The translations under genes and the position numbers were made by a program. DNA of 64,000 nucleotides from Sporodiniella umbellata (Eukaryota > Mucoromycota > Mucoromycetes > Mucorales > Rhizopodaceae): assembly GCA_025677835.1 (NCBI GenBank), contig JAIXMR010000062.1, forward strand, positions 62,001 to 126,000, written 5' to 3'. This document shows, in pieces, positions 43,907-64,000 of the stretch; positions within the stretch are counted from its first letter, which is position 1; each line of letters begins with the position of its first letter. The notes beneath the pieces are model-generated. The model was not told the origin of the DNA, did not search any database, and was given only the letters and a program-made list of their open reading frames with translations.

Positions 43907-45192
43907 ATGAACTACTCAGACATTTACGATGATATGTCCCATCATTCCAGCGATTTTCACCAATACCAGGTGATGGCAGACCCTTCCAGATGTATATCTC
44001 CTCTTGGGTTTCCTACCTCACCTGAACACAACAACACCAGTCTGATTCCCATCTATCCCTCTTCTTCTACCATCAGACAAGATCGGCCTTCTCCCAGCCT
44101 CGTTTCTCCCAGAGATATTTCGATTTCGCAAAGAGGTGTAGCCGGTTTTGTGTCGAAACTATACCAGTATGTTCTACCCAAGGCATAAGGTTTTTTTTTT
44201 TTTTTTTAACATCTACTTTCTAGATGTCTTCAGTCTACTGGTAACGAGCGAAAATACGCAAGATGGTGTAGTCATCAAGGCAAAGACATGTTTATTATTG
44301 AATGTATTCCAGGTTAGATAGAATGATTCATGTTTACTTTTGGGTCTAACTTTGTTTTTTTTTAAAAAAAAAAAAAAGAATTCACTCAACATGTATTACC
44401 ACTTTTGTTTAAGCATTGCAAATTTCAGTCCTTTGTGCGCCAGTTGAATGTAAATAGTAGTTTATTAAAAGAAAAAGATGTACTAAAAAAAAATAAAAAA
44501 AAAACCCTTAAAAGATTTACGGATTTCAACGTGATACAGACGCTAGAAAATCAAAGGACAGCAAAGACAAAGACTCTTGCCGTTGGTCTCATGAAGACTT
44601 CCATCCCGGCCGCCGCGACTTACTGCACAGAATCCGAAGAAAGCCGACAAAGTCGACCAGAAGAAGGGTTGTCAAAGTCGAAGATTCAGAAACGATTCTA
44701 AAGATGCAAGAGGAAGAAGATTCAGCCGACGATGACATGGACCAACGCCGCTCGTCTTCCTCTGCATCTTCTGTTCATGGTCTTGATTATGCCTCACCCT
44801 ATGAATCTCAATCCAACAGTCTGATTCATGTGACACTACCCAAACCTACCGCGCTTCCTGACGAGTTTGACTTTATGGGCGCAGAGTCTGAACGTGAAAT
44901 CGACCAAGACATTGCTTCAGAATTGATAACAGCCCAGCGACGCTTTGATGAGCTACAGGCCTTTTACAAATCTAGACTCGCAGAGCAACAGTTACGTATA
45001 CGTAACCTAGAAAACGCTCTCTGTTGTTACCCTGAAGTCAAGCAGCCTATGCTCACCTCAATGGCGGCTGAAACCTACTATGCACCTTACGATATGAATA
45101 TGCCTTTTGATAACACTCATAATAACACTATGAATCAGCCAGTGCAGCAATCTCACTGGATGCAGCCCAACAACTCTTCTTACACGCCTTGA
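43907..45192 (+). CDS. Heat-shock-factor-type transcription factor
   Basis: Exons 43907-44166, 44224-44312, 44379-44449 and 44515-45192; phases close to 365 aa. The HSF DNA-binding domain (about residues 75-190) is split over all four exons: FVSKLYQ, then FIIECIPEFTQHVLPLLFKH, then the recognition helix KFQSFVRQLNIYGFQR, then WSHEDFHPGRRDLLHRIRRK. A basic stretch (TKSTRRRVVK) may be a nuclear signal. An acidic/Ser segment and a helix with heptad character (ELITAQRRFDELQAFYKSRL, residues about 280-310) follow. The tail is Asn/Gln-rich. It lacks a long HR-A/B trimer coil, so Skn7/Sfl1/Hms2-like roles are as likely as classical Hsf1. Start ATG 43907 follows a T-rich leader. Confidence 0.9.
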
Positions 45193-45514: not shown

Positions 45515-48019
45515 CTTTATACACCCAATCTCTATACATACTCGTTTTTCCCACACCAATTCTTTGGCTTAATCTTCTACTCTTCCCTCCCCCCCCCTCT
45601 TCCCTTTATTTTCTTATCCCCTTCCCCCTTCACTAAGCATGACACTCAAACATAACACATTTCAATAAATATGCATTTTTTAATGACAGTCAAAAACATA
45701 GAACCAAAAAAAAAAAAAAAAAGCTGATCCGACCTGTAGTACAACATGGTAATGATGTACCTCAATGTTATACGTCTTTTTAAAACTCAATTCTGTACTT
45801 TGCAAGGGGCCGTTTACAACCGTGGGGGGCATGACTGAATTGCATGCAAATTGTCCGTGCCACTGGAAAATAATTTAAGCCGCCTGTTTTTTTTTTTTTT
45901 TTTTTTTTGATACGAGGCATTAGATGCCTCGTTTTGTAAGAGTCTCTTTTTTTTTTTTTTTTTTTGGGTTCAATATACCGAAAATAGATGCTTTCTGATA
46001 TAAGCAGCTCCTTATATCCCCTTTAGAAAGATGAGGTCAGAGCTGGTTTCTATCTAAAGAGGGGGCTTATTTTTATTGGCAAAGTAACAATTTATAATCT
46101 TTTCTAGAGATTCCTTTGACTAATTTTTTTTTTTTAATTGTCATTTCTTTTATGTAAGGGATTGTCGCTGGTGTAACTCGTATATAATCCTTTTGTCAGT
46201 TGTCTAAAGGGAGTTGTAAAAAAAAAAAATCTCAACCAAATCAGCCGTGTCAAGTACAGAAAAGATTTTTATTTTTATTTTTTGGGTTTATTGACCAAAG
46301 TACGAGCGTTTTTTATTTTGTAGACTGAGATGAAAATAAAAACGAGTTTACTCTGGTCTTCAATAGTTTTTCGGGGTGCCTTTTTTTTTTTTTAAACTGT
46401 CTGTACACAATTTGTTCTATATAGCTTAAACTACAAGGCGCGTTATTGTTTCTTTTGGAACAACCACATATATTTTGATTGACTGATGAGTCTTTTTTAG
46501 CCTACATACAAGAGAGTTTTATCGCTGGATTCTAAAATCTTCATAACTTCATACTATCGAATTATTTATTACTAATTTTGTGTCAAGAACTGTTCTTTTT
46601 TTTTCTCTTCAGGGTCAGACGACTCTTTTTTGATATTTTATAGGAGCGGGGGGAAGGAACAATCAAGAGGAGCATACAATTTCTTTTTTGGGGTGTTTAT
46701 GAACAAGTAAGATTTGGGGGGAAGGGATGACAAGTTCGAGAGCTTGACAGTTTAACAATCATTTAAAGGTCCTAAAGAGCTTTTTTGTGATACTTTTACT
46801 CAACAGCGCTCACATTGACCTCTTTCTTCCCCCCCCCATTCCTCTCTCTTTCTCCCCCCCTTTTTACTCAGGTCCAGTAACTAGGTCCCAGGCAGTCTAT
46901 CCTGAGGGGTGATATTTATTATTATTATTATTATGATTGATTACTTGAACATACAAAAAAAAAAAAAAGATATATATATATATGTACATATATGTATATA
47001 GCTTTTTTTTTTTTTTTTGATTCCGCAATGCTCTGTACCTTATCTCTATTACATTATTTACTGTTTTTTTAGCAATAGAGATCGATCTTCCGTTGAACTA
47101 AAAAAAGCCACTCAATGCAACCTGTACACACTCAGTTCCGTTTCTTGTATTGTTACTATTGCTACTATTCTTATTATTTTACACAGAAGCGATGTTTAAC
47201 TAAATAGATCGTTCTCTTATTATCTTTTTTATGAAAGGAGCAAACTTTCCCTTTTTTTTTTTTTCTTTTTACTCCTGTTACGCTTTTTGGGCTGAGACTA
47301 CGCATGAGAGTAGGTATTTGCGAGCCTGTGAATGTGTGAGAAAACTAAAAAAAAAAAAAAAAAAAAAAAGTACCAGTGGTGCGGTAATAGATGTAAATGG
47401 GTAAATAAAATATCGTTAGCTTCATCGACATAGCCAGAAATCTCTTGTAATGTGACAATTAATCGATTAGATGCTATAAATGGTATACTTCTTACCACAG
47501 AAAATCAAATCTATTAAAGACATTAAAGTCTTGTTCTTTTTCTTTTATTTTTTATTTTTTTTTGGTAAATACAAACTTGTAAAGAACTATGACTTTATTT
47601 TGAAACTCTTTCAAGTAAAAACAGCAAAAGTGTTTCCAAATATATACAAGATGGTACAACAAACTTAAGGGAATATTGTGTTTTAGTTTTTTTTTTTTGT
47701 AGTGTTTTCACTGTTATTATAATTGACAAGCACAAAAACCCATTTTAAAAAAGTAATACAACGTGTCTGTTTGGTTTCAGTAGAATAGTCAGGTCAGAAA
47801 GCAAGATACAAATTAATTCAATATGTACAGTAACACTTACTCCCTTTATTTATAGATCTACGTCAGTTGAATGCTCTAATATTTACCTTTATATATATAT
47901 ATATACAGAAAGGTGATTAAGCAAATGACATAACACTTCTCCTATCTTTACCATTCTCCTTGTTTGGTTTTTGTTTTTTTGATTCTCTTTACTCAGTATG
48001 TAGCTTAATGACTTGAAAT
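45515..48019. other. Gene desert leading into the inverted repeat
   Basis: 2.5 kb with poly(C), poly(T) and TA tracts. The only structured element seen is a hairpin at 45912-45932. No coding frame has supportable content. Confidence 0.5.
45912..45932. repeat. 9-bp stem, 3-nt loop hairpin between poly(T) tracts
   Basis: ACGAGGCAT, TAG, ATGCCTCGT. It is flanked by T-runs at about 45886-45908 and 45947-45965. Same stem and loop lengths as the hairpin at 16969-16989 but a different sequence. Confidence 0.6.
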
Positions 48020-48417
48020 TGTACTTTATTTCTTATAAACTAACGCTCAGACCCTTCTTTGTTACTCAATTGGTTAATTAAGCACAGATATACTATGTTT
48101 CTTTACAGACATACTTGCCCTTCTTCACAAGGAACAAGAAGTCAATCGTACTATCATTATCGACACAAACACCCACCCACCCCCAAATTGCAAGCCGAGA
48201 CACCGGATGATCAACTGGGAGTATGAGCGTGTGAGAATACACCATCAGACATTGTGCTAAAGAAGTTGAATCTAATTTCTCTTGAATACACTACAACTAT
48301 ATCTCTTCATCACCCCACCCCCTGTTATACATATACATATGCATATATATTTCTCGTTAGTTTATGAATCTATTTGGGAAGAATCGTAAACTTCCAGTAC
48401 TTTATTGTACGGAAAAA

Positions 48418-48460
<43 letters not shown>

Positions 48461-49715
48461 GACCCAAGTGGATATGAAACAAAACAGACCAATAGACTAT
48501 CTGAAATGAATGTCTATGTCAAGACTTTCTTGTTCAGTATAATAGGTCGGGGGAATACTAGGAAAGGTACTAAGCTCATCCTACGTATACTAGTTTTCTT
48601 TTTTTTTTTTTTTTTTTTGAAGTTTCTCAAGCTTTCTGTTAAAATTTATGCTGAACCATGAGTTTCTTGTCATTTGGTTTCTAGTATTCTTCTATCAAAT
48701 AAAAGATGTTGACACATGGTTTTTCTTTCTTTTTTTTTTTGGAGAAGCCCTGATAGTTTACTGTCATTTTGTCTTGCCCATGCCACAGATATATAATTAA
48801 TGTAGCAAAACTGCTATCCTCTTTTTTTTATTTATTTATTTTCTTGTATTCTTTTCATGTTTGACTATATAACTAAACAAGAAATGCCATGTACTTTTCT
48901 TCGTGTAATACATAAACTTGTCATTGAGCATGTGCAAGCAAAAGAAAAAGGAAGTTTGTTATAATACACAAGTAGCACATATTTCGTGTTGTAATCGGTA
49001 GCGCCCGGTAGGGTTCAGATAGGTCTTTTTATTGCTATTGCTGTTATTACTATCGTTTATTGATTTCTTTGTATTACAACATAATCTACTGTCCCTTTTT
49101 TTTTTTTGTGTGTGTGTTTCCCCAAGTGGTTAAGGCGTGTTTTTTTTTCTGGCGGGAGAAAGAGCAAGCAGAAAAAAAAAGAACACACACTACCAAAGAA
49201 GGTGTTCACAAAAAAAAATGAGTCAAATTACCATCGGTTTACTTATACTGTCTTTCAGAACACAAAAAACAAAAAAAAAAACAAAAAGGACTTCAGTACA
49301 CAGACTCTCAAGTCAAAAAAAAAAAAAAAAAAAAAATAGGCGCCTCAATATGTGGCGTTTGAGCTTTGTTTCTTTTTTCTTTTCTTTTTTTTTGAGGGGG
49401 GGCCATACCATCAAGCTAAAGCAAAACCAATCAACTAAGAATAACACAAGAATGCGTGTAGCTCAGCTCTGTTTTTTTTTTTTTTTTTTTTTTTTAGATG
49501 ACTAGCACTGTTACTGTTACTGTTGCTGTTACTACAGCTGCCACCACTTCGTTTTGGATAACTTACAAATTGCATCACAAATACAAAAAGGAAGGCAAGA
49601 AATGCTTGTTTGTTTGTTATAGTTTACTCCGCTTGCTTAGAAGAAAGCTTAAAAAAATATCACAAGTACAAGATGTACATACAGGAAGAAAGCCCAGTCA
49701 GCGTCTAACTACAAA
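48020..49715 (+). repeat. Left arm of a large inverted repeat (about 1.7 kb)
   Basis: This arm is nearly identical to the reverse complement of 51335-53012. I compared it segment by segment. Differences seen are almost all homopolymer lengths (for example A39 at 48420-48458 versus 24 in the other arm; T20 versus 19 near 48599-48618) plus a base substitution at 48964/52084. Outer edge: the shared sequence begins TGTACTTTATTTC. Inner edge: it ends CTAACTACAAA. The frames inside (for example 49498-49725) have no known domain. No matching target-site duplication flanks it. Confidence 0.95.
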
Positions 49716-51334
49716 TCAAAATTGAAGCAAAAGACACTACAGTACTACTTTTATTTAAATGCCGCTGATACTATATTATTTGAATATTACCAACATTAGT
49801 GCTTTCAAGCGAGCAATGTTTCAAATAGTGTACTATAAAGTTAGATAATATATAACAATTTTTGTTGTCTTATATTTTATACATACAAGTCCTGCGGCAA
49901 ACATTATTCGTGTTTGTACAAATAATTCTTGCCCCCTCATTTGCTCTTTTAGTATGAGTAAATAGATAACTGTCTAGATATGTTTTCAAAAGGCTTTACA
50001 TGATTTCAATTATAAAAGAGCATCACCATTTCTAACTAAAGCATCAAAGGTAGTCCAATTTTAAAATGAGAACAGTTTTACAGGTAAATGCCCGCGATTT
50101 ACAGAGTAAGATCATTTTTTAAAACACACGCACACAAAGCTTTGTAGCCATTAATCGTGGCATCTTAGATATCTTTTATATTGAAGCTTACTAATACTCG
50201 AATTCTACTGGAAGCTCAATTTAAGAAATAGGGTACATCAATAGAATCGTGTATTCAAACAATGCGCCATAAAAAAAGCAAAAAGAAAATTAAGTTTTTT
50301 TTTGTGTACTTGGTCAAAGTTTTGAAATACAAAACAAAAGCTTGTAAAGCGTATAACAAAAACGAAGCCCAAGAAGCTTATAAAAAATTTGCAAAATCGA
50401 TACCAGTTTCACTTAAGCATTCATAGGCGTTACCGATTTATATTTTCAATAAATATACACAACAGACAGGATATTCAAGTGCTTCATTGTGCTCTTGGTT
50501 TGACAAGCCTTTTTTTTTTGTTTAAGCTGAACGTTGAAAGAATGGTTGTATAGCTAAAATCTATTAAATCACATAAACAAGTCTAAAATAGCACATTTTA
50601 AGCAGTTGCTAATTATACATGTATCTGACCAAATGACTATAAAACAGACAAAAACCGTTTTAATAAAAGATTCAAACATTCTAATACGCAAGCTGTTAAC
50701 AAGAAAACTGATGATTTGAAATGTGCTCATACATACTAAACACAAACGAAAGAGCAACTCTGCCTAATATTGTAAAGCTCAATGGCAAAATTCATAGCCA
50801 CGCGCTATACCGTTTTAAGACCAATCAATAATGAGACAAAAAAAAACTAGTATCTGAGATTTATAAGAAAAATTAAAGAATATATATTGGGCCGCTTCAA
50901 AAAGCATATCATGTAGCACAGTTTGTCTAGAACAAGTCTCTGAGAGGACACGTAAGATAGTAAGAGAATCAAACGTTAAACTATTCTAAAGAGCAATAAC
51001 TCTAAACAAGAGTCTGTATAGAGCAGCATTTTTGTTTTTCGACTGTATCAACAATAAACGTAGTAGGTTTAGTATCCCTAAAGAATGACACAATCCTTCT
51101 GAATACTTTTTAGGAAAATGTGTATTTGCTTCTTTTCTGGCGCTTTTTTTTTGTAACAAACCAAAAGTCGCCTGGTTAACAGTACTAAAGAAATCAAGCG
51201 CTATTTATTTATAAGGGCGTTGCTAGAATAACGAGGGGTTCTACTGATTTGATATACTTACTGATAAAATGGGAAAGTTTGCAAACCCAGCTAACGGGTT
51301 CACAAAGGCGCCAACTGGAATACGTAAATCTTAG
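49716..51334. other. Spacer between the inverted repeat arms
   Basis: 1,619 bp, unique in this window, AT-rich, with no open frame above 62 codons and no RNA gene recognised. Confidence 0.7.
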
Positions 51335-53012
51335 TTTGTAGTTAGACGCTGACTGGGCTTTCTTCCTGTATGTACATCTTGTACTTGTGATATTTTTTTA
51401 AGCTTTCTTCTAAGCAAGCGGAGTAAACTATAACAAACAAACAAGCATTTCTTGCCTTCCTTTTTGTATTTGTGATGCAATTTGTAAGTTATCCAAAACG
51501 AAGTGGTGGCAGCTGTAGTAACAGCAACAGTAACAGTAACAGTGCTAGTCATCTAAAAAAAAAAAAAAAAAAAAAAACAGAGCTGAGCTACACGCATTCT
51601 TGTGTTATTCTTAGTTGATTGGTTTTGCTTTAGCTTGATGGTATGGCCCCCCCTCAAAAAAAAAGAAAAGAAAAAAGAAACAAAGCTCAAACGCCACATA
51701 TTGAGGCGCCTATTTTTTTTTTTTTTTTTTTTTTGACTTGAGAGTCTGTGTACTGAAGTCCTTTTTGTTTTTTTTTTGTTTTTTGTGTTCTGAAAGACAG
51801 TATAAGTAAACCGATGGTAATTTGACTCATTTTTTTTTGTGAACACCTTCTTTGGTAGTGTGTGTTCTTTTTTTTTCTGCTTGCTCTTTCTCCCGCCAGA
51901 AAAAAAAACACGCCTTAACCACTTGGGGAAACACACACACAAAAAAAAAAAAGGGACAGTAGATTATGTTGTAATACAAAGAAATCAATAAACGATAGTA
52001 ATAACAGCAATAGCAATAAAAAGACCTATCTGAACCCTACCGGGCGCTACCGATTACAACACGAAATATGTGCTACTTGTGTACTATAACAAACTTCCTT
52101 TTTCTTTTGCTTGCACATGCTCAATGACAAGTTTATGTATTACACGAAGAAAAGTACATGGCATTTCTTGTTTAGTTATATAGTCAAACATGAAAAGAAT
52201 ACAAGAAAATAAATAAATAAAAAAAAGAGGATAGCAGTTTTGCTACATTAATTATATATCTGTGGCATGGGCAAGACAAAATAACAGTAAACTATCAGGG
52301 CTTCTCCAAAAAAAAAAAGAAAGAAAAACCATGTGTCAACATCTTTTATTTGATAGAAGAATACTAGAAACCAAATGACAAGAAACTCATGGTTCAGCAT
52401 AAATTTTAACAGAAAGCTTGAGAAACTTCAAAAAAAAAAAAAAAAAAAGAAAACTAGTATACGTAGGATGAGCTTAGTACCTTTCCTAGTATTCCCCCGA
52501 CCTATTATACTGAACAAGAAAGTCTTGACATAGACATTCATTTCAGATAGTCTATTGGTCTGTTTTGTTTCATATCCACTTGGGTCACTTTTTTTTTTTT
52601 TTTTTTTTTTTTAGTTTTTCCGTACAATAAAGTACTGGAAGTTTACGATTCTTCCCAAATAGATTCATAAACTAACGAGAAATATATATGCATATGTATA
52701 TGTATAACAGGGGGTGGGGTGATGAAGAGATATAGTTGTAGTGTATTCAAGAGAAATTAGATTCAACTTCTTTAGCACAATGTCTGATGGTGTATTCTCA
52801 CACGCTCATACTCCCAGTTGATCATCCGGTGTCTCGGCTTGCAATTTGGGGGTGGGTGGGTGTTTGTGTCGATAATGATAGTACGATTGACTTCTTGTTC
52901 CTTGTGAAGAAGGGCAAGTATGTCTGTAAAGAAACATAGTATATCTGTGCTTAATTAACCAATTGAGTAACAAAGAAGGGTCTGAGCGTTAGTTTATAAG
53001 AAATAAAGTACA
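51335..53012 (-). repeat. Right arm of the large inverted repeat (about 1.7 kb)
   Basis: Inverted copy of 48020-49715 (1,678 versus 1,696 bp). The 18-bp length difference is explained mainly by one poly(A) tract. The arm stops at the first bases of a sequence that resembles the terminal repeat of a TA-inserting transposon (53011 onward). Confidence 0.95.
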
Positions 53013-53440
53013 GTGGCACTCTTATAATGTTATCCACTTGATATAATAGGTAGAGTTCTGAATAAACGGTAAAGCAGTGTTGTCTATAGAAGTTATTTTA
53101 TCTTACTATACCAAGCTAGATTGTTCTTTTGGGCAAAAACGATCTATTTTTTCATTATTATATGTAGTGTCCTGAGATGATAAAATGAAGCAATACCAGT
53201 AACATCTTACTCTGTTCTTGCTGATTCTAAAGACCTCTATACTGTACCCAAACGAATCGAAGCTTTTTCTAGTTTGTCCCAAAAAATCGATTATTTTTTT
53301 GCTAAACTTTTTAACTTTTGGCTTTGTACTTGCTCTACTGTCTATGAAAATGCAATCCAACACTTTGTAGCTGTGCTATTTGTAATTCTAAATTACTAGT
53401 GATCATTTCACTTCCTCGTCATAAGAGTGTTTTTACAGTG
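53011..53440. mobile_element. Candidate non-autonomous TA-inserting element (pogo-like ends)
   Basis: The left end, directly after TA, reads CAGTGGCACTCTTATAATG. The right end, read on the other strand, is CACTGTAAAAACACTCTTATGACG. They share CACTCTTAT and a similar CAxTG terminus, so they form an imperfect terminal inverted repeat about 430 bp apart. A coding-like frame of about 65 codons (53186-53392) lies between but matches nothing I know. Whether this is a MITE is uncertain. Confidence 0.35.
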
Positions 53441-53541
53441 AGGTATATAGTCACTAACACCATAATGATAACATTTTCTCAAAGTGTCTTTAAAGACTGC
53501 ATGTTTAATAGAGTGTTTATTTTTTGTTACAGAAAATTACA

Positions 53542-54009
53542 CTAGTAGAGAACAAAACTAGTCCATCCCATCTCACGATCTTCCCATTCAAAACCATGAA
53601 GCTGTATAACAATGCCTGAATCTCTTTGTGAGTCAAAACAATATTCTATCCAGCAAGGTGTGCCAGTTTGTCTTCCGCCGCCTTTCTTGTCAGGCTCTCC
53701 TAATAATGAGACAATTTGGTGTCCTAGCATGTCGCTTTGTAGACCACAAGGCATGTTCTGTTGGAAAGGTAGATATCCGTCACGGGTTTGTGAATTGTAA
53801 ACGTCAATTGAATCTAAAATCAATTCATCACTCTCATGAACAATAAAGCCTAATGATATCCCTAAAGATTTGTAGGCATGGTAAATGTATTTGGAAACTT
53901 TTTTCACTGTAGGGGGAACGTCTGTTTTCAGGTAAGACACAATATCCGCCGATTTGGGGGATTGTCCGAGTAACGTGTAAAGTGGGTGGGTGGGGGCTGC
54001 AATTGTCAT
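53542..54009 (-). CDS. Conserved-looking small protein of unknown function (155 aa)
   Basis: Intronless frame with ATG at 54009. Family not named with confidence. The sequence looks folded and conserved: HPLYTLLGQSPKSADIVSYL, VKKVSKYIYHAYKSLGISLGF, LILDSIDVYN, then MPCGLQSDMLGHQIVSLLG followed by EPDKKGGGRQTG and CWIEYCFDSQRDSGIVIQLH. The LGEPDKKGGG turn and the alternating strands suggest a compact alpha/beta domain. No signal peptide or membrane helix. Intragenomic neighbours give no functional hint: the inverted repeat lies on one side and the FAR1-like gene on the other. Confidence 0.75.
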   Translation of the reverse strand: MTIAAPTHPLYTLLGQSPKSADIVSYLKTDVPPTVKKVSKYIYHAYKSLGISLGFIVHESDELILDSIDVYNSQTRDGYLPFQQNMPCGLQSDMLGHQIVSLLGEPDKKGGGRQTGTPCWIEYCFDSQRDSGIVIQLHGFEWEDREMGWTSFVLY

Positions 54010-55385: not shown

Positions 55386-57513
55386 ATGTCGAATCAAACA
55401 AGTGAAGCAAGCTCAAGTAGTATGTCACATCAATTTATTTCGCATGAAAAACAAGAGGAACAAACTTTGTTTGTAAATATAAAAAGTTTTCAACACTGCC
55501 GGATTTAAACAATTGTACTAACTGAGACTATTGTTTTTTATCTGCTTTTATACTCTAAAAACACTCTTGTAGCTTGAGCCATTTTATGATCTTTTGACAG
55601 GGAAGACTTTTGCAGAAAGCAAGACAGCTATCGAATACTGTAGAGAGTTGTGTGCAGAATACGGTTTTACAGTCAAGCAAGAAGCAAGTACACATAAAGT
55701 AAACCACATAAACAATCATCTTGAAAATCCAAAAAAATCAGACTACTCACTTTATTTTTTTTTTTTTACCTTTATCCGTTTCTTTTTATTTTATATATAT
55801 TTCTCTATATATTCTTAAACTTTCGCACAGAATATCTACGTGTACTGTTCACGAGAAGGACTACCTGATTCTCTGCGTAACCCAAAATCAAACCCTCAGC
55901 GCAAAAGACCATCAAAAAGATGCGATTGTAGATGGAGAGTTGTACTGTACATAAGTGGCGGACTTTGGGAATTTCGAAAATCACTAAATCCTGCAGCAGG
56001 AAAACACAATCATGAGCTGATGGACCCCGAAGAGATTGAACGCAATTGGCCTAAAGATGTTATCGATTATATATGCGAACTCGCTCGTCTGCGCATGGCA
56101 ACTCAGGAAATCAGAACGCGAGTACAAGCTCAGTTTCCGGATATTCACTGGAATGAACGCCGCTTTTATAATCGACTTTCCGAAGAGCGACAGAAAATCA
56201 AACAAAGAGACGCTACTGAGAGAACACGCGAGCTATTTCAAATTTGGAGCAAGATATGTACACTGGCAGCAGGAAGCGGTGAGCTATCTCAGTTTGTAAA
56301 AGCTGAGCTTAGCGACTTACACCAGACCCTTATTCAAACAACACAAGTGGATAATTCAACACTTCCTGATCCTGCTGTATTTAGTGACGATAGCACGGAA
56401 AACAAACTTGAAGTAGCGGGTGTGGAGGATGGCACTTGTACTCCCAGTGCACGCCAGTTGTCAAAACAAAACATTAGCAATGTTCCCAAAGGTTTCATAC
56501 AAGTGGAGGTTCCTAGACAAACATACTATATAAAATCTCAAACTCAGCGCCCAGTTCTAGAAGAAAGGCTGCCACGAGGTCAGAAAAGAGGTAGAGGGCT
56601 AGAGGATAATGGTATGACAACACCTGAGCCTACCCAAAAGCCGTTGAAAAAAGGGAAAAACAAACAACCATCTTTATTGCCCAATGAGGGACCACATCAA
56701 GAAAACACCTTTCAATGTAGGGGCCCTTATTCTGATAGTAGGTCAAAAGCATCACCAAATCCTCCAAGAATCAACACAGCTCCTATTATGAGAACTAATC
56801 CTTCCGCTCACTCTTCCAATCACCGCCAAAGCTCTCAATTGCAGCCAACCTCACTTGTGTACGCCTACGATAGCAACAGCATGTCTTTAGGATCACCACT
56901 TTCAGGATATGTACATACTTCGTTCTCAAATCCGTACCATATGAGCGCACCCCACAATCCACCTTCATTTGGCGAAAATGAAATGCAGTTTCAATTCGAT
57001 CCTTCTCAAACACCAATTGTACGCACCAATAGTCAGGCAAGCAATGCAAATAGCAATACTAACAGTGTGTCAGCTATCAACACAAATATGCAGCCTCACT
57101 CTATATCTAGTAAATTACCTCTTCTTCATTCAAGCTACCATCAGCAACAACCACAAACAACTCAAAATACACCCCAGCCCATCCCTGAAGCGAAAAACAA
57201 TCAGATGAGTGCAAAGACACAATGCATTTATTCGATGAACCCGTCGCCTATCATCTCCAACTCAAACATCAAACAAAATATGAATCAAATATCTACTTAC
57301 GATACTGTAACGCACAGGGGCTCTGTATCTGCCTCTTCGGTTGAAGATCAGCAACATCCAAGTGACTATAGCAATTCGGTATATCTACAGCAAAGCCATC
57401 GTCGTCAAGACGGGGGCATTATGCCAGTCTACAACCGAAAGTCATCACAAGCTCAACCCCCAAAAAACGATAACCATAGAGCAAATGTTGATCTTTCGTT
57501 ACAAAAGCAGTAG
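55386..57513 (+). CDS. FAR1-like zinc-binding DNA-binding protein with long Gln/Asn/Ser-rich tail
   Basis: Exons 55386-55472, 55573-55698 and 55831-57513; 631 aa. The N-terminal domain (about 30-135) has the FAR1/WRKY-GCM1 layout: TFAESKTAIEYCRELCAEYG, then NIYVYCSREG, KRCDCRWRV, LWEFRKSLN and the HNHEL end, i.e. C-x(n)-C...H-x-H zinc ligands. A helical region follows (WPKDVIDYICELARLRMATQ, ERRFYNRLSEERQKI, to about 230). Then comes a low-complexity Ser/Asn/Gln/Pro-rich tail with KRGRG and KPLKKGKNK nuclear-signal-like clusters. FAR1 domains come from Mutator-like transposases; no transposase core is present here, so it looks like a domesticated regulator. Targets unknown. Confidence 0.82.
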
Positions 57514-60500
57514 CCATCTGAACACTGTTATTTTCTCTCACCCCTCTCTTCCCAAAATACAAATGTATATTTGAGTGTATGCTGATCTCTATGACAAAGG
57601 TAAACGGAGCTAAGGCTTCTTTTAAAATATCTTAAAAACGTTCATTTCAGCTATAAATATTTATATATGTATACATATTTTATTCCTATTGTACATATGC
57701 CGCAAATTTACGATAAATAAAAGGTATTCTTTTTCTAAATACCCCTATTTTATATACTGTGTGGTTTCATACGGGTTAAGTAAATGCAGGACCAGGGTAA
57801 CTTAATCTTAGACGTTTCTGTTGATCTCAATCTAATATATCTTTTAATGCATGTATTCAAGTAGAAGCAAACATACATATATATATTTTTAAGGAGGGCC
57901 AAGACTGCATCTTCTTAACGATGGCTTTAAGATAAGCATTTTGAGAATACTTTGTGTTTTAATTCTCAAACTAAGCTCTCTTTCAAAATGTAGAACTACC
58001 CTGTTACGTCAGAAAGGTGTTACATGACAACCACATGTACATCGATTTTCATGTTTTCAAAATGAACTCCCTGAAAGACCCACGTACAAATACAACCTAT
58101 CATTCTAGATTCTTTTTAGAACTTGTGACACTTGGTAGGTGATTGCACATTTTTTAAAAATTCTTTTTTAGTTCTTTGTTTAACTTCATATAGAATTGTT
58201 TAACGCGTTTGGTTTTTACAAGTGCCTATATGTTCTTTTCTATTATTTTTTAAGTTCTTTCTACATGTGCTAAAAAGCGCCCTGTTTTTAAAAGATCTGA
58301 TTTTAAATATAGTATCAATTTCTTTCTTAAAAAATAATACAAAACAATAAAAGCATAAACGGATGTACTACTAGAATAAAACAAAATAAAGTAAGGCCAC
58401 AAAAGCTTTTTTTTTTCTTGAGTTACTAGGACTATAACACATAAAAGCGTACAAATATTTAGTCTCTTTAACCTAGTTACATCAATATATAATTTACTGA
58501 ATGAAACTGTGTTCATTTTGAGAATAGGCTTTTTATCTTAATTTAAAAAAATACTAAAATCAGAAAACATTTCTCTGCAACAAGTAACAACATAAAACAT
58601 ACTTGATACAAAAACACGTGTATTACCTGTAGAAAATGCTAAATAGAATAAGAGTAGATGAATAGACACGAAAATAGGAAAGGGCTGAAGTGTACCACCA
58701 AAGAAACTCGTGTGAGAGTTGAGATAGATTACTTGTCGAAATCCTACGTAGCTCAAAAATACACGTCAAAAAAATATACTATAGCACATAATAAGGTACA
58801 TCAGTGAATTTGTTTTGACTGGCCCTTGCAAACACAGTTATCGTTTCTCATTATCACGTGTTTTCTTTTATTTATTTATTTTTTGCTTTTTTTTTTGGTC
58901 TGTGATTAGCGGGATTTGCTATAAACAATATAAGCCTATTCTTTCGCAAAAGCACTTTTTTATTAACTATAGGCACCAAATGAATATACATCTTTGAGTT
59001 TTTAACGTTTATCAAGTAAAAAACTCATCTAATCAGAATAATGACTCTTTAGAGCCCGAAACATCTGTTTCTCCGAAACGAAACATAAATCTGGGACCCC
59101 CGAAATGACTGCGAACTAAATACTATAGACATTTTCAGTGCTTTTCATAGCTGGTACCCTGCGCCTTTTTAAAAATGCAAGGACCAGTAACCGTCCTCTT
59201 AACAAAAAGTATTTAAAAATGTTATTTTTTTACTTTATTTTTTTTGGTATGCAGTGTTACTAAGAAGCCAGACACATAAACGTAAACAAAAGTCTATAAG
59301 TATTTTGCGTTGTCAACAGTAAGAGTTAGAGCTGTTTCTTGTATATTTGAACATAGACCCTGAGTAAATCGAATCGGCTAAAAAAATAAACATTATATTA
59401 AAAATTAGTCATACTCTTACTTTTTTTTTTTTCGGCTTGTTGCATTTTTATTCGGCATAGAACTGGCCAAAACATTGTTTTTGTTTTGACTTTGTTTAAA
59501 AGCACAGAACCAAAGCTCTCTAAGAAAAGCCCAAAAGTATGGAAGTCACGACATTATTCAGCAAGTGCTTCCCAAGAAAGAAAACTAATTTTAAACAGCG
59601 CGTTCCATTCTTTCAAATTCAGATAATAAGCTGCATTATTTTTGTGCTCACAAAAAAGACTTTATTCAAGAAAAAAAAGGTTCTTGAAACGAGCCCAATT
59701 AACGATAAGTAGAATATGACGTTTAAAGAAGGTTTATGTTTGTTATTTTATTACAGAAAAATTGCTATTGGTCCTTTAATGTGGTGTTTAAGTATTTAAT
59801 TCCAATTCTTAGCTGTCATTTCGGAATATTATTTTTGTAGCTCTGGCCTATAAATTGAACTTCATTTGTTTATTATTATTTGTAGCGTAAAATACATCTT
59901 TAAATCGAGGATTAGGGCTTCTCTTTAAAAACTTTTTAAAACAAAACAAAAATGGAATCGGCGTTCGATTAGCTCACTTTGTCTTATGCAAGTTTTTCTT
60001 TTTGACAACTTTAATGTACGTAAACAGCTAAAAATCCCAATAAATTCGCCGCTTGCCCCTATATTCTGGATCAAAGATACCTAAAAAAAACAAGCTAAAA
60101 ATCCGCAATTCCAACACACACACTATTTAAGAAAAAAAAACCGTCTATGTCCATAAATTCTAATTTTTGTCAGCTCTGTTTTGTTTTATAAGCTTTTATT
60201 CACAGTTTTTTATTTTTTTTTAAAAAAACAAAGAAACAAAAGGTAAACAAACTTCATAAAAGGGTTTCTAAAAATAAAACCCGACCAAAAAAACAAAACG
60301 ATCGATTTTTTTAAAAATTGTTTTCCTAACGGATAAACGTTGTTTCTTTATTATAAACACACATTCTTTGTTTTCTCATATATTAAAAACTCAATACAAA
60401 AAGAACAGGAAGAAAAAGAGAAAAAGAGGCACAAGAAAAATGGTTTTATATCTATCTTTTTAATTGTTTTAATACTTTGACTTTTACTATGCCTTAATAC

Positions 60501-63500
60501 TTCAATGATTGTTATTTGCTGTCATTTTAATAAAAAATTTTATAACATTAAAAAAGCCGAAGACCAATGACCGTTATTCAAGGCTTTTTTCTCTTTTACT
60601 TTGACTATACGATGCTATAAGATAGATGAACCAACAAAAAAAAGCCTATAGATAAAATGCAGTACTGCAGCCTGTTTTTTTAAATAGTCATTTTGTGCCC
60701 TCTTACTGTTTTTTTTTCAAAGTTTTTTCCTCAAAAATGTGAAGATACTCATGATAATGTTAAGGTATATAGTTGGCTATTGAGATGTAAACATAAAATC
60801 AAGAGGCGGGTAGCTTTATTAAAAAACGGCACTTTAGCTTTCAAGAATTTTTGAAAATACTATGAACAATTTAACATATTGTCAAACTAAAACAAAAATT
60901 AATTTTGATTGCTGAAGAAGTTTTTGAAAAATATCAAATGTAGTTTTGATTTTTCAAATTGAATAAGTATAGATTATTTATAATATTTTTAGTTTTGTTT
61001 GGCTTTGTATATAAAATGAGTAGGCAAAGTAGATGTGTATAAAATACAATAAATGTGGCATCAACTCAAAAGTGAAAATAATTTCAAGCCACAATCAATC
61101 GACGTAAACACAAACGTTAAACAAAGGTACAATAAATTTTTTAATATATTGCAAAAAAGCGTAATTGATAAAAAAGTAGATGGCCAAAAAAAAAAAAAAA
61201 AAACAAATTTTAGGGATGCATCATGTAGTTTAGAGAAAAGCCGAGAATAATTTTTTTAAGTAAAGTGTAGGTATATTTTCTCAACTCTTAGTTTTAGTTT
61301 ATTTCACTCAACGCAGTATTTTACTAACCAGTTTTATATATATGTATATATATAAAGGAACTTCGAGCATTTCATTACAATATATATTTGGTTTTTGAAC
61401 CAAAAGTGATTAAAATACACTCTGCCGCTTAGTTTTCTATACGAAAATGAATGCGTTTAGCTATATATACATATATGCTTTTGAAAGTTCCTGCTCGAAT
61501 CAAACATAGAAAAATAAATCACAGGGTATGCTTCAAAAAGGTTTAAATTGATGGAAAGTAATGAAGGATTATAGAGTTTTTTTTTTAAAAAAAAAAAAGT
61601 ATTTAGGATACTTGATGTGGCATACAGAAATGCAAAAAACTTGAAAGGTAGTTTATTGAGAAAACACAGGTGACTAGCAGCTGAAATACCTTTTTCTTTT
61701 CTTTTCTTCCTTAAAAAATATTGAGCTACAATTGGTATTTTAGAGTTGTATTTGTTACAAAGCTATTCAATTCTTTTATACACTTGTATTAGTTATTCCA
61801 GGTAAAAAAAAACCGAAAGTAAAAAAAGTCGATAACACTTTTTTTAGTATGTTAACAAAAGATTGTAAAAGATAAAGTCTTGCTATTGGCTTGTTCTAAG
61901 AAGAAAAAGGATCTTCAGTTATTTGGCTGAATATATTTATTTATCAAAATTTAGAAGCTTTCCCCAGATACAATTATTTTGCTTAGAATTTTTTAGAAGG
62001 TATTGACCAAAAAAAAGTATAGACTTGCACAAAACAAACTTTAATATTCCTAGTGGCTAATAAAGTAATTGGCTTTTTCTTGTCTACCGGTATTGAAGCA
62101 AAACAAAACAAAACATAGTGGTATTAAGCATCAAACGTCAAAAACATAGAAGTATAACAGCCCTTAAATTTATTATAACACCAAAATCACATTTGACGCC
62201 AAACAAAAAGAATAGAATGGTAGCAAAACGTAAATTAAAGGCGAAAAAAAGTAGAAACAGACGATCAAACATAAGGTTTTATATAGTGTTGATAAATATA
62301 TAGTGTAATATAATGTATCTAACGTTATAGTTCTAAGAGAGTTGCAGATGACTGGCCATACTTATTTTGCAAGCTAGAAGAAATATATGTATCTATAAAT
62401 CGTCATAGAAACATCAAAAAACCACCAAAACTTTATGTTTGAAAATATAAACAAGAGAATAATAGAATATAATGAGACAGAAAAAAAAGCAGAAATCAAA
62501 AAAATAAGATCTTCATTGACCCTAATTTATGGCTTTGGATATAACAGAATAATATGCGGCACAGCATTACAATAAGTTTTTACTTTGTAAATACGAATAG
62601 TTTGAGATTCAAGCAGAAGTAAGGGTACCAAAAATTACGGAAGGCTGATAAAAATATAAATCATAGAAGAGAGGAATATGATGCCAATTTTTTGTAAGAA
62701 ACTTTCAATAGGCTAAAGCCCACAAGCACCACAAGCAAAGAAAGTTCGGAGACTTACTTGCAGTATTTGCTTGCATATATACAAAGGCAATGTAAAGAAC
62801 ATGTAAACAGTTTAAAGCCAGCGTGGTTAAAACAACTTTTTGCTAGTCTTTACTCAATTGTACCACAGACAGTCTATAACCCTTGGAGGACCTAGATAAT
62901 GTTTACCCAAAAAGAAAACCAACAAGCAAAGGGATCATTGAAGAATGCAAAACAAAAGGCGAGATTTATAAAAAACTTGCTACAATACTTCTATGACATG
63001 AGAAGAAGCTCTTTAACATATGAAACAAGCTTATTGATAGAAAGAAATAAGTTCGAGCCTTAAATGTACAGGAACCAACTTGAAGGCCAGCTCATCTTGT
63101 ATGGATTATGTACATTACCAAATTTCTCAGGTTCTAGGCGCTTTTAAAAACTGAGTGGCATTTTCTGTATAATACAGTTGCTTTAAAAGGCAGGAGGTTA
63201 GTTTACGGACAGTTTATAAGTTCTAACGAGAGAAAATTCTATTTTTTGATTATGGAGTTTAGATAAAAGTAGTTCAACTCTATGAGGACCCTTCTGTTTT
63301 TCTTTTAAAAAACGCTTCGTTTGCAAACGTCTAAAAAAATACACAAAATGCTTTCAGTAGCTTTTGGGGATTTTCTAGTTGCATTTCGGCTCGATGGGCC
63401 GTAATAAATGACAAAAAAAAAAACTTAGTAGAAAAACAAAGCCATTTACAGATCTCGGGGCATGCATTTTTTTTAGTTTATAAAATGAGGTAATAAAAGC

Positions 63501-64000
63501 GCAATTGGCAGTATTGTTCAACATGGATATATTTTTTTAAACGACTTCTATAAAAAAAAAAAAATAGTTGCTCATGCCTTTTAAAGAAGTAATGTATAGA
63601 TCCCCAAAAAAAAAACAGATCGGAAGCAATTGTGAGTTGTACATAATTTACTATTCAAGAGCCTACCCTGAGACAATACTTTTTTAACCAAGAGAAGTAC
63701 TTCCAAAACATTGGGTACCACAATGTGCTAAGACCGACGGATTTACCTAAAATAGCACTTATCTCCATTTGGTAAAACTATAATATCTTTTTTTGTTTCT
63801 ATTACTCTGGATTGCCACAGGACCTGTTGTTGTCGTAGTTCTAGTGCTACGAAGGAAGAAACTCAAAAGTTTCTATATATGTAGCCAGATTTTTTTGATG
63901 ATTAAGCCATATAATGCTAAACTCTTCAGCACATATCTGTGTTTAGAGCTTTTAGAATGTTACTTCAATCGTATTTATACTGATTTCTTTTAGACTAAAA
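57514..64000. other. 6.5-kb AT-rich gene desert at the right edge
   Basis: No frame above about 90 codons and none with domain content on either strand. Short homopolymers are fewer and shorter than elsewhere, and A/T-alternating runs are frequent (for example 61336-61356 and 61460-61475). No tandem array, tRNA, rRNA or transposon was recognised. Possibilities include regulatory DNA, very old repeats, or chromosome-structural DNA; the sequence alone does not decide. Confidence 0.5.

What the first reader, a model, noticed from the sequence alone, without database searches (positions are those of the whole stretch)
48020..53012. Five-kilobase near-perfect inverted repeat in a gene desert
Two arms of about 1.7 kb (48020-49715 and 51335-53012) are reverse complements that differ almost only in homopolymer length and at a base substitution (48964/52084), around a 1.6-kb unique spacer. 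No transposase, target-site duplication or known domain is present. If transcribed, this would fold into a very long hairpin RNA, a natural trigger for RNA interference, which is active in Mucorales. It could also be a recent inverted duplication, a foldback transposon, or an assembly chimera. Near identity means recent origin or ongoing gene conversion.
Basis: partly seen in the sequence, partly recalled or inferred. Interest (0 to 1): 0.85.

Follow-up and report, generated by a model that had tools for sequence, protein, structure and literature searches.

The report
Local inverted duplication with near-identical arms
A 1.7-kilobase stretch of non-coding DNA in an insect-associated mould sits next to an almost perfect mirror-image copy of itself; it looks like a local inverted duplication that is young or kept identical by DNA repair, and two more structures of this kind turned up in a small sample of the genome.

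Summary
Arms 48020-49715 and 51335-53012 are reverse complements: 2 substitutions in 1678 aligned bases, plus length differences at 4 of 14 homopolymers, around a 1619-base spacer. The window is Sporodiniella umbellata (Mucorales), contig C158. Beyond short matches, each arm matches only the other, and the spacer is single copy. The repeat lies in an 8.3-kb stretch without a recognised gene, between convergent genes. No abutting target-site duplication, no Pfam domain in 21 open frames tested and no further copies were found. Self-comparison of 256 kb gave two more private inverted pairs: an NAD(P)-binding gene pair on the same contig and a pair on C1. Both switch abruptly from diverged to near-identical homologous sequence, the mark of gene conversion; no direct pair of that size and identity was seen. 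Best reading: a local inverted duplication, recent or homogenised, no function shown. Homopolymer content suggests the left arm is native and the right arm the inserted copy. RNAi genes exist, but no transcription or target is shown. An inverted-repeat centromere is not excluded but unsupported.

The parts
48020..49715 (+). left arm of the inverted repeat (probably the native copy)
   Evidence: homopolymer-rich like the left flank
51335..53012 (-). right arm, reverse complement of the left arm (probably the inserted copy)
   Evidence: sits between homopolymer-poor spacer and right flank
49716..51334 (.). spacer, one match (itself) in the genome search, no recognised gene
48420..48458 (+). A39 run; the partner run at 52589-52612 has 24 bases (largest arm difference)
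43907..45192 (+). HSF-type transcription factor gene, four exons as I read them; its 3' end faces the repeat
53542..54009 (-). gene of a family found in many Mucorales (most relatives carry the precomputed label PF19929; this protein scores below that family's cut-off); its 3' end faces the repeat
55819..57513 (+). main open frame of a FAR1-type gene (BY458DRAFT_273514); consecutive locus tags put it next to the previous gene in Mucor bainieri as well
49498..49725 (+). 75-codon open frame ending just past the inner arm edge (73 codons in the right arm); no paralogue found; probably not a gene

Best explanation
A local (about 1.6 kb away) inverted segmental duplication of non-coding intergenic DNA, about 1.7 kb long, private to this locus. 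The two arms are nearly identical because the event is recent, because arm-to-arm gene conversion keeps them so, or both. Sister cases suggest that it is one case of a recurrent type in this genome. The likely history is that the left arm, continuous in composition with the DNA downstream of the HSF-type gene, is the original, and an inverted copy was placed between the spacer and the right flank by a break-repair or replication template-switch event. Shown here: the arms, their private two-copy state, the abrupt edges, and conversion-like tracts in two sister pairs. Inferred: the direction of copying, the mechanism of the event and any continuing homogenisation. No function is shown, and none is needed to explain it.
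For: Two substitutions in 1678 aligned bases. The arm gave 20 genomic matches: itself, its partner and 18 of 25-81 b. The spacer matched only itself. Similarity stops at the edges: outward 26-35% and inward 25-45% identity in steps of 20 to 200 b, null mean 28%, null 95th percentile for 20 b 45%. Left flank plus left arm hold 18 A/T runs of 12 or more in 4523 b; spacer plus right flank hold 0 in 2148 b, 8.5 expected, P about 2e-4. Sister pairs, cut points chosen after inspection: C158:45547-48855, 52 substitutions in 321 b then 2 in 412 b (Fisher 1e-17); C1:318697-326454, 61 in 224 b then 6 in 1881 b (8e-56). Each matches essentially only its partner in the genome.
Against: In the window no clear diverged homology remains beyond the arm edges, so gene conversion itself is not demonstrated here; a single recent event is enough. 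The homopolymer argument rests on one locus, the cut was chosen after seeing the data, and composition may change for other reasons; at a cut of 8 the contrast is weaker (27 against 4, P 0.004). Function of the spacer or arms cannot be excluded without expression or chromatin data.
Confidence: 0.78

Rival explanations
1. Natural hairpin-RNA locus: transcription through the 5 kb gives a long double-stranded RNA that Dicer cuts into small RNAs.
For: Arms would pair almost perfectly. The genome search gave one Piwi-domain match, eight RdRP matches on four contigs and one Dicer_dimer match; counts are lower bounds. In Mucor circinelloides one of three Argonaute genes serves transgene-induced and endogenous silencing (PMC3720535, abstract and section list seen).
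Against: No evidence of transcription was available. The arms have no other genomic match than 18 short ones (25-81 b), so small RNAs would have no evident target but themselves. The two sister inverted pairs are or include ordinary gene pairs.
Confidence: 0.06
2. Inverted-repeat centromere: a unique AT-rich core flanked by homogenised inverted repeats in an ORF-free region, as in Candida tropicalis.
For: No recognised gene, unique core of 32% GC with no homopolymers of 12 or more, near-identical inverted arms. C. tropicalis has 3-4 kb repeats around a ~3 kb core (PMC7292649, passages seen).
Against: Arms and spacer occur nowhere else in the genome search, whereas C. [quoted passage not shown] Mucor lusitanicus centromeres have retrotransposon-rich flanks (PMC10977804, passages seen); none of 17 RVT_1 matches lies on C158. 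Spacer GC (0.319) is within the range of other ORF-free gaps sampled (0.289-0.358). Similar inverted pairs occur elsewhere, including a second one on the same contig.
Confidence: 0.04
3. Foldback or other transposon with 1.7-kb terminal inverted repeats.
For: Geometry only: long inverted termini around a unique middle.
Against: Single locus in the genome search, no target-site duplication abutting the edges, no Pfam family in 21 open frames of arms, spacer and right flank.
Confidence: 0.04
4. Assembly chimera or false duplication.
For: Reads were not available, and near identity is what a false duplication would give.
Against: Four different sequences abut the four arm ends, which needs two independent false joins; arms differ at two bases and four homopolymers. 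Two sister pairs with mixed diverged and near-identical parts argue that such structures are real.
Confidence: 0.08

Closest known systems
Near-perfect inverted repeats of Caenorhabditis, including intergenic ones, proposed to be actively maintained (PMC1803023, part 1 of 4 of the text read)
   Same: Local inverted pairs of divergent or convergent paralogues and intergenic DNA with near-identical arms around a spacer; gene conversion is discussed as the cause.
   Different: There the arms flank or include clear gene pairs and the structure is traced through three species; here the arms hold no recognised gene and no relative could be compared.
Human Y-chromosome palindromes (PMC3723533, start of abstract in search listing)
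   Same: Inverted arms kept above 99.9% identical by arm-to-arm gene conversion.
   Different: Large, gene-bearing and in a male-specific region (size and gene content recalled); here 1.7 kb and non-coding.
Homogenised inverted-repeat centromeres of Candida tropicalis (PMC7292649, passages seen)
   Same: Core of a few kb flanked by near-identical inverted arms in an ORF-free region.
   Different: Arms and core here are private to one locus; no kinetochore evidence; different phylum.
Mosaic centromeres of Mucor lusitanicus (PMC10977804, passages seen)
   Same: Mucorales; AT-rich; no recognised gene here.
   Different: Described as having a centromere-specific motif and retrotransposon-rich flanks; the passages on Mucor name no inverted repeats; no reverse-transcriptase match on this contig. 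The motif was not tested.

Membership tests
Homogenised local inverted repeat (palindrome kept by gene conversion) | Two near-identical inverted arms at one locus | tested here: met
   2 substitutions in 1678 aligned bases; only two full copies
Homogenised local inverted repeat (palindrome kept by gene conversion) | Identical tract ends abruptly in diverged but homologous sequence | tested here: not met
   No clear diverged homology beyond the window arms; met in the two sister pairs on C158 and C1. So gene conversion is not shown for the window repeat
Homogenised local inverted repeat (palindrome kept by gene conversion) | Arms more alike within a species than between species | not testable with these tools
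   No DNA of a second Sporodiniella or Rhizopus was available (one search says the genome has no relatives here)
Foldback / terminal-inverted-repeat transposon | Target-site duplication | tested here: not met
   No direct repeat abuts the edges; a 6-mer and 5-mers shared at offset positions only
Foldback / terminal-inverted-repeat transposon | Several dispersed copies | tested here: not met
   Only the two arms in 25.9 Mb
Foldback / terminal-inverted-repeat transposon | Transposase, own or in trans | tested here: inconclusive
   No Pfam family in 21 open frames of arms, spacer and right flank; a source in trans was not sought
Hairpin-RNA locus | RNAi machinery in the genome | tested here: met
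   Piwi, RdRP and Dicer_dimer matches over cut-off
Hairpin-RNA locus | Transcription and small RNAs from the arms | not testable with these tools
   No expression data
Hairpin-RNA locus | A target elsewhere in the genome | tested here: inconclusive
   Other matches are 25-81 b at homopolymer-bearing places (one of them looked at); short targets and self-silencing not excluded
Inverted-repeat centromere (C. tropicalis type) | Inverted repeat around a unique core in an ORF-free region | tested here: met
Inverted-repeat centromere (C. tropicalis type) | Repeats and core shared between chromosomes | tested here: not met
Inverted-repeat centromere (C. tropicalis type) | Kinetochore binding | not testable with these tools
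   Needs ChIP
Mucor-type mosaic centromere | Retrotransposon-rich flanks | tested here: not met
   0 of 17 RVT_1 matches on C158
Mucor-type mosaic centromere | Centromere-specific sequence motif | not tested
   The motif was not given in the passages seen; the original paper is not held

The most novel reading that the evidence does not exclude
Sporodiniella umbellata makes, and keeps homogenised, short-range inverted duplications throughout its genome, of the order of one per 100 kb, covering promoters, gene starts and pure non-coding DNA, with inverted pairs strongly favoured over direct ones. The window's repeat would be the purely non-coding member of that class.
Probability: 0.35. Interest if true: 0.6.

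Novelty: new member of a known kind. Interest (0 to 1): 0.33.

Why it matters
On its own it is a local inverted duplication. What may matter is that three private inverted pairs with near-identical tracts (one of them the given finding) appeared in 256 kb of this Mucorales genome and no comparable direct pair. If that density holds, this fungus would be a good place to study how inverted repeats arise and are kept identical; such sites can also be breakage-prone and hard for assemblers (general knowledge).

Tried and rejected
Transposon: searched the genome for further arm and spacer copies and the edges for target-site duplications; none abutting. Non-coding RNA: Rfam at gathering score gave 0 matches in the window; at E up to 1 over 47000-53500, five matches far below gathering score (E 0.17-0.87), four of them being two mirrored pairs in the arms; rejected. 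Hidden gene in the arm: the frame 49498-49725 matched only its two places and no Pfam family; 20 further frames gave none. A homologous gene pair beyond the arm edges, as in the two sister pairs: not found. Against this, one search did list weak hits that I take as chance: blastp between translated outer flanks, best E 0.006; within the spacer, best non-trivial E 0.010 (that listing was cut at 1500 characters); blastn spacer against its reverse complement, 26 b at E 0.006. The 57.6-64.0 kb AT-rich stretch as a repeat-rich region: itself plus one match of about 50 b on C119. Left flank 45650-48019: itself plus 25 short matches. Retrotransposon-bearing contig C58 as a comparison: direct repeats of 135, 126 and 57 b only.

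Synteny: consecutive locus tags put the 53542-54009 gene and the FAR1-type gene side by side in Mucor bainieri (MBANPS3_004323/004324). An HSF-type relative lies on a contig of the same length as at least one of these two genes' relatives in Pilobolus, Apophysomyces ossiformis, Radiomyces, Zychaea, Absidia cylindrospora and Halteromyces, but not in Rhizopus stolonifer, Helicostylum, M. bainieri, Mucor lusitanicus, Choanephora, Fennellomyces and others. Equal contig length is only a proxy and orthology within the HSF family is uncertain, so I make no claim that the repeat interrupts an ancestral neighbourhood.

A larger sample to measure the density of inverted pairs was not possible (see below).
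Full report
What was checked. The window lies in contig C158 (152,232 b) of a 25.9-Mb, 198-contig genome. The main open frame of its FAR1-type gene is 100% identical, over 99% of the query, to BY458DRAFT_273514 of Sporodiniella umbellata, on a contig of the same length, so the organism is that Mucorales fungus; the next best named relatives are from Rhizopus.

The repeat. Arms 48020-49715 and 51335-53012 are reverse complements. Over 1678 aligned bases there are two substitutions, at 48765/52283 (C/T) and 48964/52084 (A/G). Of 14 homopolymers of seven or more bases, four differ in length: A39 against A24, and three by one base. The spacer is 1619 b. The structure is 4993 b in all, inside 8.35 kb with no recognised gene, between the convergent 3' ends of an HSF-type gene (exons within 43907-45192) and a 155-residue gene with relatives in many Mucorales (53542-54009; 37 proteins, several unnamed). 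ARAGORN found no tRNA and Rfam no family at gathering score. Of the open frames in arms, spacer and right flank, 21 were scanned against Pfam and none matched at E up to 0.1.

Uniqueness. In a search of the whole genome the arm gave 20 matches: its own place, its partner, and 18 of 25-81 b at arm positions that hold homopolymers, some of them within the arms themselves (I looked at one, on C101: a poly-A run plus T-rich DNA). The spacer gave only itself. The tool skips simple repeats and scores only the best candidates, so this is a strong but not absolute statement. No direct repeat abuts the arms or the whole; a 6-mer and 5-mers are shared at offset positions. This disfavours a transposon.

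Edges and direction. Beyond the arms, similarity falls to about chance level: 26-35% outward and 25-45% inward, null mean 28%; the 45% is the first 20 bases inward and equals the null's 95th percentile. One search lists only weak hits (E 0.006 at best). The left flank and arms are rich in long A/T runs, while the spacer and right flank lack them: 18 runs of 12 or more in 4523 b against 0 in 2148 b, 8.5 expected (P about 2e-4; cut-off chosen after inspection; at 8 or more, 27 against 4, P 0.004). This suggests that the left arm is in its native place and that the right arm was inserted between the spacer and the right flank. It is an inference from one locus.

Sister cases. Self-comparison of all of C158 (152,232 b), 60,000 b of C1, 30,000 b of C155 and 13,462 b of C58, together 255,694 b, gave three pairs of at least 700 b and at least 90% identity. 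All three are inverted and span less than 10 kb: the window repeat, C158:45547-46281/48123-48855 (92%) and C1:318697-320880/324295-326454 (95%). No direct pair reached that size and identity; direct repeats seen were a tandem array on C1 (offsets in multiples of 57 b), a tandem array of 66-79% identity on C155, and pairs of 135, 126 and 57 b on C58. The small loci of 2-10 kb brought in by other searches were also compared with themselves (five loci from the window repeat left out): no further inverted pair of that kind, one short tandem array. Lower-identity distant pairs were inverted too (C1, 83%, about 47 kb apart; C158, 74% and 72%, about 54 kb apart), as was a 73-b pair on C158. The C158 sister is a divergent pair of NAD(P)-binding genes (PF13460): 52 substitutions in 321 b of the 3' part, then 2 in 412 b of the 5' part and promoter. 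The C1 sister has 61 substitutions in 224 b, then 6 in 1881 b plus some gaps, covering the start of a small paralogous gene pair (no Pfam family) and its upstream non-coding DNA; the spacer holds an MBOAT gene. The cut points were set after inspection. Apart from three matches of 37 b inside the C1 repeat, each arm again matches only itself and its partner. Abrupt change from diverged to near-identical homologous sequence is the usual mark of gene conversion (general knowledge). One of the three pairs was the given finding, so the less biased count is two in 256 kb; the sample is small, C158 was not chosen at random, and C155 and C58 gave none.

Interpretation. The simplest account is a local inverted duplication of intergenic DNA, recent or homogenised by arm-to-arm conversion, as discussed for C. 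elegans inverted pairs including intergenic sequence (PMC1803023, part 1 of 4 read) and for Y-chromosome palindromes (PMC3723533, start of abstract in listing). In the window itself no diverged homologous border remains, so conversion is not shown there; youth alone suffices.

Rivals. RNAi genes are present: one Piwi match, eight RdRP matches on four contigs, one Dicer_dimer match. A hairpin transcript is therefore possible, but no expression data exist here and no target beyond the arms is evident. A C. tropicalis-like centromere is the most striking reading of the geometry, but such centromeres are described as highly identical to each other (PMC7292649, passages) and this repeat is private; Mucor centromeres are described as having retrotransposon-rich flanks (PMC10977804, passages) and none of 17 reverse-transcriptase matches lies on C158. 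The original paper on Mucor centromeres was not held, and its motif was not tested. An assembly error would need two false joins.

Literature. Searches for centromeres with inverted repeats in Mucorales (3 papers), S. umbellata genome, Mucor lusitanicus kinetochore and centromere, Rhizopus centromeres with Hi-C, palindromes and fungal genomes (204 found, 20 listed), inverted duplication in fungi, long inverted repeats and hairpin RNA in Mucor listed no paper whose title or start of abstract describes such repeats in Mucorales; only open-licence papers are held.

Verdict. Its recurrence in this genome is the more interesting lead.

Noticed in passing
C158:45547-48855 (L014:5547-8855), outside the window: Divergent pair of NAD(P)-binding (PF13460) genes as an inverted repeat; 5' parts and promoters nearly identical (2 substitutions in 412 b), 3' parts 16% different: looks like a gene-conversion tract.
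   Followed up: yes
C1:318697-326454 (L037-L038): Another large inverted repeat, near-identical 1.9-kb tract spanning non-coding DNA and the start of a small paralogous gene pair, with an MBOAT gene in the spacer.
   Followed up: yes
57600-64000: AT-rich, gene-poor stretch (27-32% GC in the 2-kb steps from 58 kb), single copy apart from one match of about 50 b on C119.
   Followed up: partly
49498-49725 and 51334-51552: A 73-75 codon frame after a T-run and AG in each arm, pointing inward and stopping just past the arm edge in both copies; no paralogue or Pfam family found.
   Followed up: partly
53542-54009: Small protein with relatives in many Mucorales, next to the FAR1-type gene in Mucor bainieri by locus tag; most relatives carry the precomputed label PF19929, but the window protein is below the cut-off (13.0 against 25.9 bits).
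   Followed up: partly
43907-45192: The closest database protein for this HSF-type gene, from S. umbellata itself, is only 273 residues and 90% identical over 71% of my four-exon reading, so its public gene model probably differs.
   Followed up: no
C155:225519-229428 (L044): Long tandem array of diverged repeat units (66-79% identity, offsets near 276 b).
   Followed up: no
C58:28001-41462 (L032, L033): Two reverse-transcriptase matches in opposite orientation about 7 kb apart on a 41-kb contig, with short identical direct repeats; a possible retrotransposon-rich contig.
   Followed up: partly
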